Shown here: piece after piece, positions 32,901-56,052 of the stretch
Layout: each line of letters begins with the position of its first letter
How positions within the stretch are numbered: position 1 is the first letter of the stretch
Assembly: GCF_964355755.1 (NCBI RefSeq)
Contig: NC_092670.1
Coordinates: 7,527,001 to 7,591,000, forward strand
Reading direction: 5' to 3'
DNA: 64,000 nt
From: Antedon mediterranea
Taxonomy: Eukaryota > Echinodermata > Crinoidea > Comatulida > Antedonidae
Position numbers and translations under genes: made by a program
Notes under the pieces: model-generated
The model's input: the letters and a program-made list of their open reading frames with translations, nothing else
Told to the model about the DNA's origin: nothing
Database searches by the model: none

Positions 32901-35900
32901 TTAACCATGTCCCCATCATTCAACTCAGTGGGCATGCAAGGGATCACAGGACCAGGTAAGGAAGAGTTAACAACCAAAACGTATGTGATGGTCACCAAGT
33001 CAAATGGTTCTCATTCAATTTCCCCAATCACACAGAATCCTTGACCAAATCCAACGTAACTCAAAATTTGTAAAACCTGTAAAAATCCAATGTTATTTAA
33101 GATTTGTTTCCATGTGGACACAATGCAATAGGTAGAACTAAAGTAATTTAACAAATAATTATGCTGGTTCATCCAAACCATTGCTTGTCATTGGTGAAAT
33201 TACTTGTGTTGGTTTTGCACTCTTGTACTGTGTCCCCGCTGTGTCCTAATGGGAACCAAGCTTTAGCATGTAGACCATATGCTGTCTGAACATGAAAATC
33301 CTATTGGATCAGGTTGATTGAAAGTGATTAGCAATATGAAAATGACAAAACATAGTATGTATGCTTAGTTGTTAGATATTTCATTCTTTCAAAATTATTA
33401 GAATACTAGTGAACACCTAAACATTTAAATTAGAACAGTATGTATATGTCATTATAATGAATATACTATTAACCAGTAAAAAACTCCAGAGGGAGCTAGA
33501 CTTGTAAAAGAGTATGATCAGGTATAATGTACATAGTGCCGAACACATTTTATAGCCTATGATAGTAAAGGTTCTTCTAGGTCATGAACTAAAATGCATT
33601 AGTAACCAATTAACACATTTACAGATAAATCTTTGAGATCAGTTTACTTAAACAACATATTAGTATTACAATTGGTTTTAGTAAAAATTCTTACACAGTA
33701 GTAGTTTGTTGAGTTAAAAAGTGGCTCACTAATCTGTTCATATCCCTAGGCCTATGAATGACTGATGATAGGTTTGTAAATTCTTCTAATATGCAAGCTG
33801 AACTTGTGACCCAATTTAATAGTAGTACTTAGAGTTTTTAATGGCGCAAACTGGATCATGAATGTTGTAAGAATTTAAGGTGCATCACCGTTGAGAGCTA
33901 ACAGAATCTACTATAATAACAATCATATATGAAGAACACTAACAACATTAGTAATATTTTGTAGCTATATCCTGTTTTAAAAACAACATTTGTGAGCATA
34001 AATCATAGGTAAACATATTAAATAGTTCAATTTTATATATTGAAGTAGTATGAAATCATAACATGTCCTGACAATGATAGAAATTCATTTTGAACAAAGA
34101 GAAAAAAGACATGTGACTTAACCTTCAACTCCTCCCATCACCACGTTTGTGCCTCTGAGAATTTATGGGGGAAAATAAGATAAATGAAAAAAACAAACTG
34201 CCTTTAATATAAATTCATTAGGGACTTTGCTTCATTTAATTTTCAGGAAACCTCATGCAGTTTTTTCATTTAAAAATTTGGGAAGATTGAAAAGACGGTG
34301 GGGGTCCTTTAATTAAAGATTTTAGGGAGGATCAGATATTGAAAACAGATGTTTAAGTAAATCATCACTTATATATATATCAAAATATCTGTTAACTGAT
34401 CTTTTGTGTAGGCAAAGATGTATTAGTAACAAATATATTTTTTTAGATGATTAGCACCCAAGGAAATATTATACATTATTTGTTCTTATTGATTCTACAG
34501 CTATGGCTGGATTAGCACGAATAGCCTCTCCTAAATCATCACAAGTTACCTCTGCACCAACGTCTCCTTTGAGTCTAACTTCTTACGCAGTTGCTACAAG
34601 AGGGCTCCCTTCACTACCAGTCTCTGTCAAGAACGAAATCCATACACAAATGCCGACAAAGACCAGCAACTTACCTAGCGTAACAACAGTTTTAAAGACC
34701 CAACCAACGACCACCATCACAACTACCTCGATCACAACCCCTACCATTACAACTAATGGTGTCAAAGGTCATGATTCTCCTGTACACGTCACATCAAATC
34801 ACACATTGACGAGTCAAGCTTTAGCGAACGCAGGACTTTCAACCCATATTTTACCAAGTTTAAACAGCCAAGTCGGTGTTAGCCAATCCCTACCATCAGG
34901 CCTAAATAATAGCCTATCCTCCGTTCATGGTCTACCTAGTCAAATTGGTGTTGGCAGTCAACTTATTGCTGGTCAAATGGTCGGAGGGCAATTAATTACG
35001 AGTCAAGGAACTGTAGTAAGTCAAGGGGTACTTGGCCAAACGTCTGTAGCATCTCCTTCATCAAACCCATTGGGAAATTTAGCAGGTCAGTAGTAAATAT
35101 GTAATTAATTATATAGTTATCATAAACATATAAATAATAATATATTATTATTAATCCAAAGGCAAATTACTGAACAAAAATTACAATGCTGTGGGTATCA
35201 GTTGCTGGATCTCAATAGAGATACAAAAAGAAAGTAAACAGCCAGAAAAGTTAGCAGAGCTTTCGGGCAACACTAGCCCTTCATCAGTGCAAATAATAAT
35301 ATATTATGATATAAAATATTGAAAGAATAATAAATGATGTGATAAATGATTTCAGGTCCACATGTTTAGAATTGTTTTATACTGTAATAACTAATTAATC
35401 TTATCAGCTTCCAATAGTTTATTATTCCTTTTTTTTTATTTTTATTTTTTATTTCATACTCATCCAACAGCGAGTAACCCGCCAATTACAGGATGGATAA
35501 ACTATTTAATAATTTCACAAGACAAACATATACACAAGATGCTCTACATAAACAAAGCCTTATTATTAAGTCTTTGGGAGTGGAGTTGTAATTTGTCATG
35601 AGAAAAAAACCCTGACATATGACAGGACTTGAACCCAGACCCTTAGATTGGTAGCCAAGCATCATAACCACCAAGCCACAGCTCCACTTTTATACAAATT
35701 ATAAACAGTTCCTTTAAAATGGTTAACAATTTAGATGACTTACTATACAAATGTCCTACTTGTCATATATAATACAATTTAGTAACAATTATGCTAATGA
35801 TTATCTTACAGTAAGTAGTCTTGGTAATACTACAGAAGTGGATGGAATTAACTTAGAGGACATCAAGGAATTCGCCAAGCAATTTAAGATAAGACGTCTT

Positions 35901-37876
35901 TCACTAGGCTTGACACAGACCCAAGTAGGACAAGCACTAAGTGCAACTGAAGGTCCTTCATACAGCCAAAGTGCAATTTGCAGGTATAATAATTATATCA
36001 GAAACCATAGTATACATTATTCGTTTTTTGAAAGAAAAATACAGCAGATCCCTCCCTTCAAGGCAACCCTATTAAAAGGGCACTTTTCTGTGAAGCTAAC
36101 AGAGGGGAATATGCTTTACCACTGCAGCCTGATGAATGTCCATATCAGGGGGTGTCACTATTCAGTTGACAGCCGTAATAAGAGAAAACATTGTTTGGTC
36201 CCATATTTCCTTTTAATAAATAGAGCATCTCTGTCCCACACTTCCTTGGTGACCATTTTCCAGTTTTGGTAGTTCTGATCAAACTAACAAATGTAATGGC
36301 GTAGCAGAGTAACTTTTCACATTCATCATGATAGTGATTTTTTTTCCCCATAAAATATTGTGAAATAATGTGGTTTTATTTTTTGTAGATTATTTTTATT
36401 TGTTAAAAATTGGTAATGAGAATGTAATGATAATGTAATGATAGTGATGATGACAATAATAAAATAATTTTGATGATACAAATTATGAAAAACACTTGCT
36501 ATTTACTGTATTTGGTCTGGTGATCCCTTTGCTGTTGTAGGTTAAACAAGCTTTACTTGGATTGAGTGCAGTTGAAGCATCATCATATCTAAAATGTGCA
36601 AAAAACATGTACATGTACAATTTAAAAGAGAACCACAGAAAACAAGGGTCCGCTAAAAATGTGTATTATTTTGCTTTGCTATCAAGTTCAAGTTCAAGTT
36701 AAAATTTATTGTCAAATACACAGTAAATGAAATTTGCCTTCCAAGGTTCAAATTACAATAAAAATAACAACAGTTAAAAACATACAATACTATACAATGG
36801 ATAAGATAATATATAAGAAAATATGCTATGTATAAAACATTATGAATATATAATGATATATTGACTGTCCGTCCCAACTCTCCCATCCCCACTAAACAAA
36901 TATGCTATGTATAAAACATTATGAACAGTATAAATATTAAAATACTATATAAAGAATAAAATATAAAACGTCTCAAGTTATCTTTTAAATTGCTTGTTGT
37001 ATTGCCTGATTGCACACGGAAGAAATGATTTATTATGACGCTCAGTCTTCTTAATTGAAGGAATCATCCTTCCGGATCTACTGAAATTTATAAAGTTAAA
37101 AAGAGGATGAGACTGGTCGTTAATTATACATTTTAGTTTTTTCTCCATAACCTTATCGCATATATCATGGATAGATGGGACGTTTGCACCTATTACCTTC
37201 TTAGCCATTTTTATTATTCTCTGTAATTTATTTGAGTTATACTTAGATAAACTATTTAGCCATACAATACAGCAAAATGTTAATATGGACTGTATCATAG
37301 CCTGATGGAATAGAGACAGCGCATCTCTGCCAATATTAAAGTTTCTTAATTTCCTTAAGAAGTACAATCTTTGGTTTGCCTTCGCATAGACTTTGGCAGT
37401 GTTGGCGTTCCATGACAGTTTTTCATCTATCCATACTCCTAAATATTTATGTTCACTAGTTGTGCGGACATCATTATCTAGCTATTGCCTGATTAATAAT
37501 TTATATTTTTATATTTGAAACAAGGTTTGAAAAATTGGACATTACACCGAAAAGTGCCCAGAAAATTAAACCAGTATTAGAGCGATGGATGGAAGAGGCA
37601 GAAGAAAGGCACAAGAATGGGGTGTCACAGTTGACCGATTTTATCGGGAGTGAATCGACCAAGAAACGTAAACGTCGAACATCATTCACACCGCAAGCCT
37701 TGGAGTACCTCAACTCTCACTTTGAGAAGAATACTCATCCGTCAGGACAGGACATGACGGAACTTTCTGGGAAACTTGGGTACGACCGGGAGGTAATTCG
37801 TGTGTGGTTTTGCAACAAACGTCAAGCCTTAAAAAACACTATAAAAAAGTTAAAATCTGAGCCATCAGGTATTTGA
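26932..37876 (+). CDS. POU6F2: POU6F, class VI POU homeobox transcription factor (POU6F2-like)
   Basis: This is a nuclear sequence-specific transcription factor; vertebrate POU6F2 is expressed in retina and brain. Exons are 26932-27089, 29698-29851, 31481-31605, 32355-32955, 34501-35085, 35812-35983 and 37525-37876. All have AG/GT borders and every phase joins, giving 715 residues before the stop at 37874. Residues about 1-540 are Gln/Ser/Thr/Ala-rich activation sequence (QQQLISIPV, ASQIAANQ, GTPTTQLASG). The POU-specific domain begins at DGINLEDIKEF (about 552), includes RRLSLGLTQTQVGQALSATE and SAICR, and crosses the last intron to FEKLDITPKSAQKIKPVLE. A basic KKRKRRTSFTPQALE opens the homeodomain (about 647-706); the recognition helix is REVIRVWFCNKRQ. 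NKRQALKNTIKKLK after the helix favours POU6F2 over POU6F1. The true start is unresolved: a micro-exon at 22619-22628 fits the phase, otherwise the in-frame ATG at 26973 could serve. An AG|GT inside the last exon (37869) could permit an alternative C-terminus. Confidence 0.95.
28320..28440 (-). repeat. Possible tRNA-like SINE remnant
   Basis: The minus strand has a good RNA polymerase III box B (GGTTCGAAACC, 28358-28368) preceded by a ctgaagcacttgca phrase resembling a variable region/T-stem. No acceptable box A was found, so this is not a functional tRNA gene and may be a SINE head remnant. Confidence 0.25.
29481..29612. mobile_element. 132-bp hairpin MITE with TTAA target duplication
   Basis: The ends are ctctgtgtacactatcaga (left) and, reverse-complemented, ggctctgtctacactatgtg (right), and the match continues imperfectly for about 38 bp to gtgcccA. 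TTAA occurs directly outside both ends (29477-29480, 29613-29616). A TTAA duplication points to a piggyBac- or Kolobok-type parent. Confidence 0.8.
30906..30956 (+). repeat. 51-bp exact repeat, copy 1
   Basis: Fifty-one bases starting ttaaggtgcatcaccgttg and ending ctataataacaatca are identical to 33875-33925, in another intron of the same gene 3 kb away. The flanks are unrelated apart from the word gggcc/gggtcttaa nearby (31010). Confidence 0.85.
31606..32354. other. POU6F intron with short perfect hairpin
   Basis: This intron contains a perfect 10-bp-stem hairpin at 32110-32134 (ccatgctttc, loop gcaga, gaaagcatgg). It lies just after gttttccactagg, a phrase shared with the GGTTTCCACTAG MITE family seen at 48981. 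It may be a remnant of that family. Open frames at 31786-32085 look non-coding. Confidence 0.4.
33101..33261. mobile_element. 161-bp MITE with GTTTCC...GGGAACC ends
   Basis: The left end gatttgtttccatgtggaca pairs with the reverse complement of the right end, gcttggttcccattaggaca. The flanks are TTAA (33097-33100) and TTTA (33262-33265), consistent with a TTAA duplication carrying one change. It lies in the POU6F intron after exon 32355-32955. Confidence 0.65.
33875..33925 (+). repeat. 51-bp exact repeat, copy 2
   Basis: Identical partner of 30906-30956, lying in the 32956-34500 intron of POU6F. No duplicated target site or inverted ends are visible around it. Confidence 0.85.
35254..35290 (-). 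ncRNA. Hammerhead-ribozyme-like motif (type I, minimal stem III)
   Basis: The minus strand reads GCA - CUGAUGA - A - GGGC(UAGUGUU)GCCC - GAA - AGCU - C - UGC. All conserved core residues are present (CUGAUGA, GAA, and a C cleavage-site nucleotide). Stem II is a 4-bp GGGC/GCCC hairpin, stem III is the self-complementary AGCU, and stem I starts with three pairs (GCA/UGC). This layout matches small hammerheads of Penelope-like retroelements, which are known to act as dimers because stem III has no loop. Function here is inference. It lies in the POU6F intron before the POU-specific exon. Confidence 0.75.
35430..35686 (-). mobile_element. Full-length tRNA-derived SINE
   Basis: On the minus strand a tRNA-like head has box A TGGCTTGGTGG (35668-35678) and box B GGTTCAAGTCC (35625-35635). 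An unrelated body of about 150 bp follows, ending gagtatgaaataaaa, with an A-rich tail (plus-strand 35430-35452 poly(T)). The tRNA-like part has no intact anticodon arm, so it is a SINE rather than a tRNA gene. It is inserted in the intron just upstream of the POU-specific-domain exon. It differs from the SINE at 23315. Confidence 0.8.
36650..37488 (-). mobile_element. 3' fragment of a non-LTR retrotransposon (RT C-terminus plus 3' UTR)
   Basis: The minus-strand frame from about 37488 to 36978 encodes the end of a reverse transcriptase. It contains TSEHKYLGVWIDEKLSWNA, then LYFLRKLRNFNIG, a QSILTFCCIVW segment and RIIKMAKKVIG, ending before a stop. This LG(V/I)..D..L.W to SIL...W arrangement is typical of CR1/jockey-group elements. 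The 3' UTR (36650-36977) contains aaatttattgtcaaatacac, a tail phrase common in such elements. The insert lies antisense in the intron that splits the POU domain. The visible frame is open but strongly 5'-truncated. Confidence 0.85.
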
Positions 37877-40340: not shown

Positions 40341-40745
40341 ATGTTACATGTACACGAGACATAATACATGTACACGAGACATGTTACATGTACACGAGAC
40401 ATGTTACATGTACACGAGACATGTTACATGTACACGAGACATGTTACATGTACACCAGACATGTTACATGTGTATGAGACATGTTACATGTACATGAGTC
40501 ATGTTACATGTATATGAGACATGTTACATGTACACGAGACATGTTACATGTACACCAGACATGTTACATGAGACATGTTATATGTATATGAGATTTGTTT
40601 ATTTAATGAGACATGTACATGAGGCATGTTACATGTATATGAGACATGTATCTGAGACATGTCACATGTACAATGAGACATCATATCATCATATGAGACA
40701 GGTTTATCAAACACATGTTACCTGTATTATGAGACATGTACAAGA
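40341..40745. repeat. 20-bp minisatellite (ATGTTACATGTACACGAGAC)
   Basis: About thirteen head-to-tail 20-bp units lie between 40341 and 40600, many identical. They become irregular to about 40745. Each unit holds the palindrome ACATGT twice. Open frames across it are repeat artefacts. Units are contiguous without unique spacers, so this is not a CRISPR-like array. Confidence 0.95.
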
Positions 40746-47660: not shown

Positions 47661-49486
47661 ATGGAAAGAAGACTAGTGCGTGTGTATTTGTGTGGAGCGC
47701 ACAGTACCGGGAAAACAACGCTTCTTGGTGACGTTTGCAAAGAATTACCGGAGATCAAAAAGGAAGCCGAAATTGCAAGACAGGTACTGGAGGGGATGAG
47801 TCTAGAGGATAGACGCACCGCTATTGACTTCCGCAACCAACCCGAAAAGTGTGAAAAATTCCTGGTAAAAATATACAATATTTTATTTAAATACAGCGTG
47901 TATTATTCATTGTAATCCTCCTGTCATTTATGTTATTAAACGTATATTAAACGTAATATCCGATCATAAAGCTATTTGAAAAAATTCACAAAACAGTGGG
48001 TGGGGCAGTGTGATTGTATTAAACAGGGCCTAAATCATATCATTAAGTATAAGATATATATATATATACGTCCCTGAGCCTAACGTTTTATATTTCCTTT
48101 TTAGAAACATATAGGCCTACACTGAGAGTGTACCGCAACTAATTTGTAGTGTAGTATCCCCGGTAGTATCAGTAAGATTTACATAGCAGCTTATTTCATA
48201 ACTGCAAACATTATTTCCTATATATATATATATATATAAATCAAAGAGCTGCATAGGCAGGATATAGAAAAAAATCAAGATCAAATAAGTTAAAACTGCC
48301 TCAATATAGATTTATTTTAACGACATGTTTCGGGCATAGCCCATCATCAGGTGAAAAGAATTGTAACAAAGGATAACATATGACTTATATATGTTATCCT
48401 TTGTTACAATTCTTTTCACCTGATGATGGGCTATGCCCGAAACATGTCGTTAAAATAAATCTATATATATATATATATATATATATTTAAATCGTTCATT
48501 GTAAAACGAGTAGAACTGAAATTGGGACTATTAAGTGGAAATTCTATGGTACGGTCTCCTTAAGTTTCGACACTGCACAATTTCAATTCGCCCTCCCTCC
48601 AACCCTAAAACTTATACTCGACATTCCCCAATTCTGAATGGGTCGTTTATAACCGTATAGGGTCATAATTTTGTTTGTATCCATTATTATTCATAATAGT
48701 GACTTATTTTTTTGTAGCGATTGGTATTGGAATCTCAATGCGAGGTCGACCGTAAAAACGCATTGAATGAAGATTTAATAGAGGGATATATCGCAGACAG
48801 AGCTGGAATTGATCCTTTAGTGTACGCTGCATCATACCTTGGTGACAAGGTGAAAGACTCCCTGCTGTCACTACCAGTTACTCAAGAATGTATCAAAAGG
48901 TACGTGTGAACGCAAATGATTACATTCAACAACCGCGTAGATATCTATGTGATCGTGTGAACGTGCATCAATCGACTTAAAACCTGGTTTCCACTAGAAC
49001 GCAAATAAGCGCAACGCAAGTGAGTTGACCAATCACAAGCGACACGTTCAGAATGATGATCCATCAACTTGTGATTTGATCAACTCATGACTTACGTTGC
49101 ATTTACGTTATTTTAGTGGGAACCAAACCTAAGGGCGTAGGCTTACTGATGCCTCCATGAGGCAAATAAGAGAGGACCATTGGCGACTTACTCGAAATAT
49201 ACCTAATAACGTTTTTAATTGTTCTCTCTTTAAATGGTTTGTTTTCCTCTTTTTTAGGTATAAAAATGATAAAAACGCCTTAATATTTGTCGTGCATCCT
49301 CATAAAGAATGTATGAAGGAAGACGGTATCAGACCTACACCTGTATGGAACGAACTAACGCGATATACAGAAATATTAACTCAGCTTCTCGACCATCTAC
49401 AAATTAATTACATCCCAATAACCGTCCTGGACCGCACTGAACGATGTCAAATTGTTGTGAACCAAATACAAGAGAAACTGTCTTAA
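47661..49486 (+). CDS. P-loop NTPase, AAA_28 (NadR/Ttd14-like) family, 204 aa
   Basis: This is a complete three-exon gene: 47661-47864, 48718-48899 and 49258-49486 (stop 49484-49486). All introns are GT/AG and the phases fit (0, then 2). The protein starts MERRLVRVYLCGAHSTGKTT; the Walker A motif GAHSTGKT is at residues 12-19 in an N-terminal beta-strand/P-loop. Residues 75-105 carry QCEVDRKNAL and an IADRAGIDPLVYAASY segment, the conserved DR..(I)D..VYA region of AAA_28/NadR-type kinases, where the Asp/Arg sit at the nucleotide/substrate pocket. A HPHKE segment follows and the end is QIQEKLS. About 200 residues is normal for the small single-domain members. Substrate is unknown; relatives are nucleotide-binding or nicotinamide-riboside-kinase-like. 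A leftward extension to a non-ATG start is unnecessary. Intron 1 carries the hammerhead palindrome and intron 2 a hairpin MITE. Confidence 0.78.
48320..48352 (-). ncRNA. Hammerhead-ribozyme-like motif, minus-strand copy
   Basis: The minus strand reads AC - CUGAUGA - U - GGGC(UAU)GCCC - GAA - ACAUGU - C - GU. All core residues are present. Stem III is the loopless self-complementary ACAUGU, as in small dimerising hammerheads of Penelope-like elements. Stem I begins with two pairs and extends past one U-C mismatch by four A-U pairs. Confidence 0.78.
48418..48450 (+). ncRNA. Hammerhead-ribozyme-like motif, plus-strand copy
   Basis: Exact mirror of 48320-48352 on the other arm of the palindrome, with the same intact core. 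It is on the sense strand of the AAA_28 gene intron, so it would be present in that pre-mRNA. There it could instead base-pair with the opposite arm in a 78-bp hairpin and be silenced. Confidence 0.78.
48981..49129. mobile_element. 149-bp hairpin MITE in AAA_28 intron 2
   Basis: The left end aacctggtttccactagaac pairs with the reverse complement of the right end, ggtttggttcccactaaaat. TAA lies directly outside both ends (48978-48980, 49130-49132), consistent with a 3-bp (or TTAA-derived) duplication. Inner phrases caatcacaag and cttgtgatt also pair. A related core (ggtttccagtagaaaacg ... agtgggaacc) is nested at about 49900-49980. Confidence 0.75.
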
Positions 49487-55230: not shown

Positions 55231-56052
55231 GGCCCTGTTTCTGCTGCCAACTAAATACCGTATATTATACGGTATTTTTTGAATACCGTATATATACGGT
55301 ATATTTTTGGCAGCAGAAACTGCGCTCATAAAAAATATACCGTATTTTGTATACCGTATTTTCCCCACAAAATTTGTGGATAAAATACGGTATTTACAAA
55401 TTTATACCGTATTTTTTGTACCCGTTTCTGCTGCCAATAAAAAATACCGTATTTTTTTTTTACATGACAAAAGGTCAACATTCGTGTTTTTATTTTCTGT
55501 CGCTGTCAGCTGTTTTACACACGTGTATATATATATTCGGCGAAAATGTGGAGCGAAGACGTCACAGTTTTACTAAATAAATTTGTGTGGGGAAGCTAAA
55601 ATGTCTGGCCAACTAAAAGGTAATAAAAGAGACAACCACATTTATAAAGACATTTCTAAAATAAAAAAGCAGGAGTATGGAATAGACTTGTCTCCAAAGC
55701 AAGTAAACTCAAAGCTGAAGAGCCTGCGAAAGCAGTACAACATTGCAAAATACAATAACTCGGGGAGGGAACGAATTAATTGTCCCCATTACGATGTTTC
55801 TGTGCTTTCACAACATCTCTATCACTAGGGCTAGGCTGTTGAAAGTGAGACGTAAAACTTCCTTTATTGCGACTTTTAATTATCGATCAAATAAATGAAT
55901 GGCAATTTGGGTAAAAAAGATGAAATTTAACACGACCACCCAAGAAGTATTGTTAGCAGAAACGGGGTACTAAAAAATACGGTATAAAAAATACCGTATT
56001 TTATACCGTATTTTTATACCGTATTTTGAGCAGTTGCAGCAGAAACAGGCCC
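55231..56052. mobile_element. PIF/Harbinger-like non-autonomous element
   Basis: The inverted ends are ggccctgtttctgctgcc (55231-55248) and, reverse-complemented, gggcctgtttctgctgca (right end at 56052). A possible 3-bp CTA duplication is offset by one base. The end word gtttctgctgccaa also occurs internally (55306 inverted, 55423 direct), so the left 200 bp is itself folded. About fifteen ataccgtat/atacggtat words fill both flanks. A relic Myb/SANT-like DNA-binding protein lies in the middle, as expected for the second gene of Harbinger-type transposons. No DDE transposase is present. Confidence 0.7.
55546..55828 (+). pseudogene. Myb/SANT-like (Harbinger-associated) DNA-binding protein relic
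   Basis: The frame opens MWSEDVTVLLNKFVW and then hits a stop. The continuation GEAKMSGQLKGNKRDNHIYK is one frame away, followed by EYGIDLSPKQVNSKLKSLRK and QYNIAKYNNSG, ending at 55828. The order (W..E...LL, then KRN..IY..IS, then G...S..QV..KLKSLRKQYN) is the trihelix/Myb-like domain common in Harbinger accessory proteins. A frameshift near 55575-55590 and early termination make it a broken copy. Confidence 0.65.

What the first reader, a model, noticed from the sequence alone, without database searches (positions are those of the whole stretch)
48304..48466. Perfect 78-bp-arm palindrome built from two opposed hammerhead ribozymes
Two identical hammerhead-like motifs face each other around a 7-nt loop inside an intron of a real gene. 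Perfect identity implies recent origin or ongoing gene conversion. In the pre-mRNA the hairpin could compete with ribozyme folding. Inverted dimers of this family could reveal how the element inserts.
Basis: partly seen in the sequence, partly recalled or inferred. Interest (0 to 1): 0.8.

Follow-up and report, generated by a model that had tools for sequence, protein, structure and literature searches.

The report
Head-to-head insert of a Penelope retrotransposon
The perfect hairpin is a recent jumping-gene insertion in which two cut-short copies of a Penelope-type element landed nose to nose, and eighteen such pairs in this genome suggest that both strands of the cut chromosome were copied from the same RNA or sister RNAs.

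Summary
The palindrome is real: arms 48304-48381 and 48389-48466, 78 of 78 complementary, 7-nt spacer, in an intron of an AAA_28-domain gene. Each arm is the 3' end of a Penelope-like element (PLE; RT plus GIY-YIG) with a hammerhead-like motif that Rfam does not call. At least 44 exact copies of the arm exist, so arm identity needs no gene conversion. The insert is larger (48238-48466) and asymmetric: the left copy has a 66-nt tail ending at start site A; the right copy stops earlier, at B. Among 100 listed of 215 motif sites, 17 close pairs are 14 tail-out, 1 tail-in, 2 tandem. All 18 head-to-head pairs found whose arms both end at A or B are one A, one B; 5 further inversions start elsewhere and one pair is separate. 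In 7 of 18 each arm holds sequence the other lacks (7 nt in the window), so neither was simply copied from the other; yet arms share alleles (15 pairs: 1 difference, 16.4 expected). I infer target-primed reverse transcription from both cut strands, on one RNA or sister RNAs, joined by microhomology. Head-to-head PLE copies are known; a 2013 paper favoured self-priming. Ordinary object, useful mechanism evidence.

The parts
48219..48237 (.). (TA)n tract, left side of the target
   Evidence: (TA)n directly outside the left copy
48238..48381 (-). copy A: 5'-truncated PLE 3' end, element positions -28 to +115 counted from the start of the 33-nt core pattern, ends at start site A (...CTTTGATTT)
   Evidence: 144 nt read on the minus strand; contains the long tail that copy B lacks
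48238..48303 (-). 66-nt tail carried by copy A only
   Evidence: the same tail end in the other A arms
48304..48381 (-). left arm of the palindrome
   Evidence: 78 nt, 100% complementary to the right arm; at least 44 exact copies in the genome
48322..48350 (-). hammerhead-like core of copy A
   Evidence: mirror of 48420-48448
48382..48388 (+). 7-nt spacer GACTTAT: continuous element sequence of copy B that copy A lacks
   Evidence: the element reads TGACTTATATATGTTATCC
48382..48466 (+). copy B: 5'-truncated PLE 3' end, element positions about -35 to +49, ends early and passes into (TA)n
48389..48466 (+). right arm of the palindrome
48420..48448 (+). hammerhead-like core of copy B: CTGATGA, extra T, stem II GGGC/GCCC, GAAA, palindromic ACATGT, C17
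   Evidence: no Rfam hit
48467..48486 (.). (TA)n tract, right side of the target
47661..47864 (+). host gene exon (P-loop part of an AAA_28 domain)
   Evidence: PF13521 E=4.1e-8 for the two exons joined
48718..48899 (+). next host gene exon, so the insert lies in the intron 47865-48717
   Evidence: AG acceptor, open frame, same AAA_28 hit

Best explanation
The palindrome is one insertion of a PLE into a (TA)n tract. Shown: both halves are 5'-truncated 3' ends of the same PLE family; their 3' tails point outward into (TA)n; one half ends at site A (+115), the other in the upstream B zone (+49 to +91 over all pairs, +49 here); the 5' ends abut. Inferred: the element's endonuclease cut both target strands, each free 3' end primed reverse transcription of the sense RNA, one at A and one at B, on the same RNA or on sister RNAs from one source locus; the two cDNAs broke off early and their 3' ends were joined by microhomology, often at a local palindrome. 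The hammerhead-like motif is carried along as part of the 3' region and, in this arrangement, would be locked in a stable hairpin in the host pre-mRNA.
For: Orientation: among the 100 listed of 215 core sites, 17 neighbouring pairs lie within 3 kb: 14 tail-out, 1 tail-in, 2 tandem; P = 1.1e-6 if tail-out were 1 in 4. A+B rule: 18 of 18 head-to-head pairs whose arms both end at A or B have one of each (13; L040, L063; L101, L103, L106, a second set whose prediction was written first, note); solo copies are 47 A, 17 B, so mixed pairs should be 39%. B-arm ends (+49 to +91) fall in the zone of solo B ends (+56 to +91). Reciprocal sequence: in 7 of 18 (L009 the window, L012, L015, L016, L018, L022, L040) the B arm reaches further 5' than the A arm while A alone has the tail. 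Same template: 15 pairs, 1 difference at shared-polymorphic sites against 16.4 for random partners, none of 100,000 draws as low (2 against 19.8 and 1 against 16.1 at the other two thresholds). One event: pair L011 has a clear 16-nt target duplication and L010 a probable one of 15 nt, of 12 pairs examined. A purified anole PLE cuts and extends both strands and starts at two adjacent internal sites, the commonest 111-118 nt into the ORF (PMC11167929); site A here lies about 110 nt after the ATG at the start of stem II (my count).
Against: In that paper start sites did not differ between strands, which does not predict a strict A+B rule. L022 differs between its arms at -3 and -26, and L012 at -26, with alleles seen in other copies (C at -3 in 12 others; G at -26 only in these two), which hints at two RNAs or later mutation. 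11 of 18 pairs (4 equal 5' ends, 7 with A longer) would also fit copying of one cDNA from itself. Five further head-to-head inversions (L057, L060, L065, L090, L119/L120) have an arm that starts at neither site or could not be classed, and L020 is B+B with (TA)n and other DNA between the arms. In the window the reciprocal evidence is only 7 nt and the (TA)n hides any target duplication. The frame from the stem II ATG stops after 11 codons (read by eye), so the match with the anole start distance is positional only.
Confidence: 0.75

Rival explanations
1. Self-priming (snap-back): one cDNA, or an antisense RNA, folds back on its own end at a local palindrome and is copied, giving a head-to-head hairpin. 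This is the reading favoured in PMC3846280.
For: Palindromic junctions with equal 5' ends in L011, L013, L014, L017; arms share alleles; the loop belongs to the long-tail arm in L010, L019, L021, L063, L101, L103, L106.
Against: In 7 of 18 pairs, the window included, each arm holds element sequence that the other lacks, so neither is a simple copy of the other. The short arm ends in the same zone as solo B insertions, which copying would not predict. The four palindromic junctions leave 0-1 nt for a loop, too tight for a foldback primer.
Confidence: 0.15
2. Two independent PLE insertions into the same (TA)n tract in opposite directions.
For: The family often uses (TA)n; L020 and the tail-in pair L023 look like this.
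Against: In the other 13 tail-out pairs no (TA)n lies between the arms (L018 holds a later insert); orientation is biased 14 to 1; a target duplication flanks the whole pair in L011 and probably L010; arms share alleles.
Confidence: 0.05
3. Assembly or library artefact (false palindrome).
For: Perfect palindromes are a known artefact type (recalled); no reads were available.
Against: The outer ends differ (long tail against none), whereas a mirrored read would mirror the flanks; 17 other pairs show the same build with different lengths.
Confidence: 0.01
4. A selected regulatory hairpin or functional opposed-ribozyme device in the host intron.
For: Very stable hairpin; hammerhead-like letters intact.
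Against: It is one of many copies of a young dispersed repeat; each transcript carries only one sense motif; no Rfam call. Conservation in relatives was not tested.
Confidence: 0.03

Closest known systems
Penelope-like elements of the Penelope/Poseidon type (PAc of Anolis; Penelope of Drosophila virilis)
   Same: RT plus GIY-YIG endonuclease, hammerhead-like motif, optional 30-40 nt tail between two RT start sites, AT-rich targets (PMC11167929)
   Different: Here targets are often (TA)n (27 of 61 solo copies have a TA-rich 5' flank) and the tail is on exactly one arm of each A/B pair; the 5' half of the ORF was not read, and the clade was not tested
Inverted pLTR structures of Adineta vaga Penelope elements (PMC3846280)
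   Same: Head-to-head most frequent, palindromes at the junction, tail optionally on one of the inverted pLTRs, duplications of 8-10 bp (passages and Discussion)
   Different: That paper reads them as self-priming on an antisense template; the reciprocal sequence and B ends here speak for two starts
Twin priming of LINE-1 (recalled; no paper read)
   Same: Second target strand primes on the RNA and gives an inverted piece; L119/L120 looks like this
   Different: In the 18 pairs the two cDNAs mostly cover the same stretch of RNA instead of adjoining stretches
Animal retrozymes (PMC7229834)
   Same: Type I hammerheads; some amphibian ones have a one-pair stem III with palindromic loop and work better as dimers (passages)
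   Different: Those are expressed as RNAs of about 170-400 nt from short tandem repeats; these copies run into RT/EN coding sequence

Membership tests
Penelope-like element (EN+) | Reverse transcriptase domain | tested here: met
   Own protein (L059, 490 aa): RVT_1 E=5.5e-6, 26.7 bits, below the cut-off 29.6; a shorter piece (L066, 289 aa) gave no family. A paralogous family, 33-38% identical, passes: 32.2-36.6 bits in 4 of 4 members scanned, of 7 aligned; its members are near-identical, so this counts as one family. No PDB sequence match.
Penelope-like element (EN+) | C-terminal GIY-YIG endonuclease | tested here: met
   Own protein 17.3 bits, below the cut-off 22.6; the paralogous family 23.2-23.6, above it, 4 of 4 members scanned.
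Penelope-like element (EN+) | RT closest to telomerase RT in a tree | not tested
   No tree was built.
Penelope-like element (EN+) | Head-to-head inverted copies, tail on one arm | tested here: met
   18 of 18 pairs with both ends at A or B; 5 other inversions and L020 do not fit this form.
Penelope-like element (EN+) | Full-length pLTR-ORF-pLTR tandem unit | tested here: inconclusive
   2 tandem neighbours within 3 kb among 100 listed sites; no full unit was read.
Penelope-like element (EN+) | Target-site duplication | tested here: met
   e.g. L030 9 nt, L088 10, L115 12, L117 12, and L116 15 set back 4 nt, among 61 solo copies with a readable 5' flank (many of the shorter shared strings listed there may be chance); hidden where the site is (TA)n.
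Hammerhead ribozyme (type I) | Core CUGANGA ... GAAA ... UH | tested here: met
   Letters at 48420-48448, with an extra U after A9.
Hammerhead ribozyme (type I) | Stems I and II | tested here: inconclusive
   Stem II 4 of 4 pairs and stem I 8 of 11, shuffle P 0.037. Of 19 sites with other letters after the core, 3 (L071, L072, L083) re-pair stem II fully as GAGAA/TTCTC, 13 related ones are shortened or mispaired, L077 differs, L086 has no such stem, L073 is the window family. The drawn fold is not the best fold of one arm.
Hammerhead ribozyme (type I) | Stem III | tested here: inconclusive
   One A-U pair with palindromic CAUG, or a six-pair dimer helix.
Hammerhead ribozyme (type I) | Rfam covariance model match | tested here: not met
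   No hit at gathering score and no hammerhead at E<=10.
Hammerhead ribozyme (type I) | Self-cleavage | not testable with these tools
   Needs a bench test.
DNA transposon / MITE with terminal inverted repeats | Both termini identical and fixed | tested here: not met
   Outer ends differ in each of the 18 A/B pairs and the inner ends vary from pair to pair.
Retrozyme | Short non-coding tandem repeat | tested here: not met
   Long copies extend at least 1.7 kb upstream into RT/EN sequence.

The most novel reading that the evidence does not exclude
A PLE complex reads one RNA twice: the two cut target strands prime at two adjacent start sites, A and B, of the same molecule, giving two overlapping cDNAs of one template that join head to head. 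Head-to-head PLE copies would then be the regular product of coupled two-strand priming rather than of self-priming, and the tail would mark which strand primed at A.
Probability: 0.4. Interest if true: 0.7.

Novelty: new member of a known kind. Interest (0 to 1): 0.52.

Why it matters
How PLEs finish an insertion is open: the 2013 rotifer paper inferred self-priming and asked for experiments, and the 2024 in-vitro paper left later steps to be validated. A genome with many young head-to-head pairs lets several models be told apart from sequence alone, and it gives clear predictions for a purified enzyme.

Tried and rejected
Rfam on the window and on the region gave no hammerhead; the hits listed below gathering score (microRNA and sRNA models) are what a perfect hairpin would attract. 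Gene conversion as the cause of arm identity: not needed, though not excluded. A first allele comparison (75 copies, 14 pairs, L020 left out; 1 difference at shared sites, in L022) and a second (18 pairs, positions up to +84, 12 differences against 22.5, P 0.019) were replaced, which stops at +44 because positions 82-84 are the B junction itself, and drops L040, L101 and L103, whose overlap is short or lies mostly beyond +44. A tendency for the B arm to be the longer one, seen in the first set (6 B-longer, 3 A-longer, 4 equal of 13), vanished over all 18 (7, 7, 4). A blast run with a wrongly built reference was repeated properly. The second host exon, the 49133-49483 frame and a short RT piece alone gave no Pfam family. 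A PDB sequence search found nothing. The solo counts still hold one insertion twice (L027 and L028 share ends and flanks).

Full report
1. The observation. The window holds a perfect inverted repeat, 48304-48381 and 48389-48466, 78 of 78 nt complementary with 7 nt between. Its RNA folds at -131 kcal/mol against -27.2 for shuffles. The genome, G000, is unnamed; it has 354 Mb in 18 contigs and the window is C1:7527001-7591000. The insert sits in intron 47865-48717 of a plus-strand gene; its two flanking exons, joined by me, match AAA_28 (PF13521) at 4.1e-8.

2. What the arms are. The arm occurs in at least 44 exact copies, and its 33-nt core in 215 sites with up to 3 mismatches, 107 forward and 108 reverse, with none for the reversed control pattern. 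Long copies run upstream into an ORF with an RT motif (..KRYIDDCVGV..) and an endonuclease motif (..LYIGETKRRLGDRFVEHL..). The 490-aa piece scores just below the Pfam cut-offs for RVT_1 and GIY-YIG, but a paralogous family, 33-38% identical, passes both in 4 of 4 members scanned, of 7 aligned. This is the build of an endonuclease-bearing Penelope-like element. No tree was built.

3. The hammerhead-like motif. The core letters are present at 48420-48448 and, mirrored, at 48322-48350. There is one extra T after A9; an extra base there is tolerated in some viroid hammerheads (recalled). Stem II has 4 of 4 pairs; stem I has 8 of 11 (shuffle P 0.037). A search for the core with other letters after it gave 19 sites. 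3 of them (L071, L072, L083) re-pair stem II fully as GAGAA/TTCTC; 13 related sites are shortened or mispaired, L077 differs, L073 is the window family, and L086 has no such stem. The core letters were demanded by the pattern. Against the motif: Rfam finds no hammerhead, and the drawn fold (-2.6) is weaker than the best fold of one arm (-8.9). Stem III is a single A-U pair with a palindromic CAUG, a form described for axolotl motifs that cleave better as dimers (PMC7229834, passages). The anole PLE ribozyme cleaves only with its protein present and is not needed for insertion in vitro (PMC11167929, parts 1-2 of 4 and passages).

4. Anatomy of the window insert. Numbering is from the start of the 33-nt core pattern. 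Copy A, minus strand, runs from -28 to +115 and ends in CTTTGATTT, then (TA)n (48238-48381). Copy B, plus strand, runs from about -35 to +49, then (TA)n (48382-48466). The 7-nt spacer GACTTAT is continuous element sequence of B and absent from A; the 66-nt tail is present in A and absent from B.

5. Genome-wide orientation. Only 100 of the 215 core sites were listed (all exact, contigs C1 to the start of C8). Within 3 kb they form 14 tail-out, 1 tail-in and 2 tandem pairs; P = 1.1e-6 for tail-out at 1 in 4, and 0.001 for 14 against 1. I fetched all 17 pairs and 40 of the 61 singles. Of the 40, L040 and L063 have an inverted 5' partner ending at A or B; L057, L060 and L065 have one with another or unread start; L061 has an inverted copy on its 3' side.

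6. The A+B rule. Of the 14 tail-out pairs, 13 have one arm ending at +115 (A) and one at +49 to +91 (B); L020 is B+B with (TA)n and unrelated DNA between the arms. I wrote the prediction down, then fetched 39 sites of my choice and one pair out of 87 sites found with a different pattern 240 nt upstream. L101, L103 and L106 were new head-to-head pairs, all A+B; L103's A end stops 6 nt short. L090 and L119/L120 have other starts; L119 and L120 look like one insertion later duplicated. In total 18 of 18 pairs with both ends at A or B are mixed. Solo copies are 47 A, 17 B and 2 other (L120 and L122-L124 left out as duplicates, L106 as a pair, L027/L028 still counted twice), so independent choice would give 39% mixed: P = 4e-8, or 4e-6 at one half.

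7. Two starts, not one copy of the other. The B arm reaches further 5' in L009, L012, L015, L016, L018, L022 and L040; the A arm in L010, L019, L021, L063, L101, L103 and L106; the ends are equal in L011, L013, L014 and L017 (L012 and L018 were read past a small gap and an insert). In the first seven each arm has sequence the other lacks, so neither self-priming of a cDNA nor of an antisense RNA gives the pair without a further one-sided deletion. B-arm ends (+49 to +91) lie in the same zone as the 3' ends of solo B copies (+56 to +91), one of which, L115, has a 12-nt target duplication. So both outer ends look like starts of reverse transcription.

8. Same template. At 17 sites where a minor allele occurs in at least 4 copies (119 copy records, counted by the same steps), 15 pairs show 1 difference between arms, against 16.4 for random partners; none of 100,000 draws was as low. 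With minor alleles in at least 3 copies it is 2 against 19.8, with at least 6 it is 1 against 16.1 (P 1e-5). Arms differ at 21 of 3,444 positions, against a median 1.5% between random copies. Against a single template: L022 differs at -3 and -26 and L012 at -26. The result fits one RNA read twice or sister RNAs of one locus; it does not decide between them, and later gene conversion would push the same way.

9. One event per pair. Of 12 pairs whose flanks I compared, L011 has a clear 16-nt duplication (ATATATATATATAGTT) and L010 a probable one of 15 nt; L016 shares 18 nt, but of (TA)-like letters with one phase shift; the rest lie in (TA)n and say nothing. Ten junctions where the ends meet directly overlap by 0-9 nt, at least 2 nt in 8 of 10.

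10. Literature. PMC3846280 (passages and Discussion) reports head-to-head as most frequent, palindromes at the junction, and a tail on one inverted pLTR, and infers self-priming on an antisense template while leaving the question open. PMC11167929 shows cutting and extension of both strands and two adjacent starts, the commonest 111-118 nt into the ORF; its main text has one 'inverted', a blocking dT, and no 'palindrom'. Site A here is about 110 nt after the ATG at the start of stem II (my count), but the frame from that ATG stops after 11 codons, so the match is one of position. Searches listed no paper that, by title and start of abstract, joins the two observations; the library holds only open-licence papers and I read passages or sections of three.

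11. Verdict. The thing itself is a young head-to-head PLE insertion, a known kind. The added value is the A+B rule, the reciprocal sequence and the shared alleles, which together favour coupled two-strand priming over self-priming.

Noticed in passing
L021 (G000:C7:11944812-11947363): The flanks of this pair are themselves an inverted repeat of 83 bp, 98.8% alike, with (TA)n in the middle: the element landed in the centre of another palindromic repeat.
   Followed up: partly
L010 and L013 outer flanks; L020 spacer and L102 5' flank: Different insertions share flanking sequence next to (TA)n, so some targets seem to be (TA)n tracts inside other dispersed repeats.
   Followed up: no
L119, L120 (G000:C10:6014123-6016176 and 6022388-6024441): A twin-priming-like copy: an inverted upstream piece (to -944) abutting a direct copy that starts near there; present twice 8 kb apart, apparently by later duplication.
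   Followed up: partly
L117, L122, L123, L124; also L027 and L028: Copies with the same ends and the same flank: single insertions later duplicated.
   Followed up: no
L068-L072, L074-L076, L078-L085: A second hammerhead-like family, 16 of the 19 sites, with the same GAAACATGTC end; 3 have a full GAGAA/TTCTC stem. L077 is a further variant.
   Followed up: partly
L018 (G000:C6:24247573-24250489): About 1.2 kb of unrelated sequence, LINE-like by eye, sits inside the B arm of this pair, a later insertion.
   Followed up: no
window 35739-37873: POU-homeobox gene exons (Pou 5.8e-17, Homeodomain 1.2e-17).
   Followed up: no
window 36981-37481, minus strand: Open frame with an ALKBH8_N hit (6.7e-12), lying between the POU exons; the sequence looks like the C-terminal part of a LINE reverse transcriptase (recalled).
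   Followed up: no
window 55254-56027: Repeated short palindromic units of the type ATACCGTATTTT.
   Followed up: no
window 40341-40698: Tandem array of a 20-nt unit ATGTTACATGTACACGAGAC.
   Followed up: no
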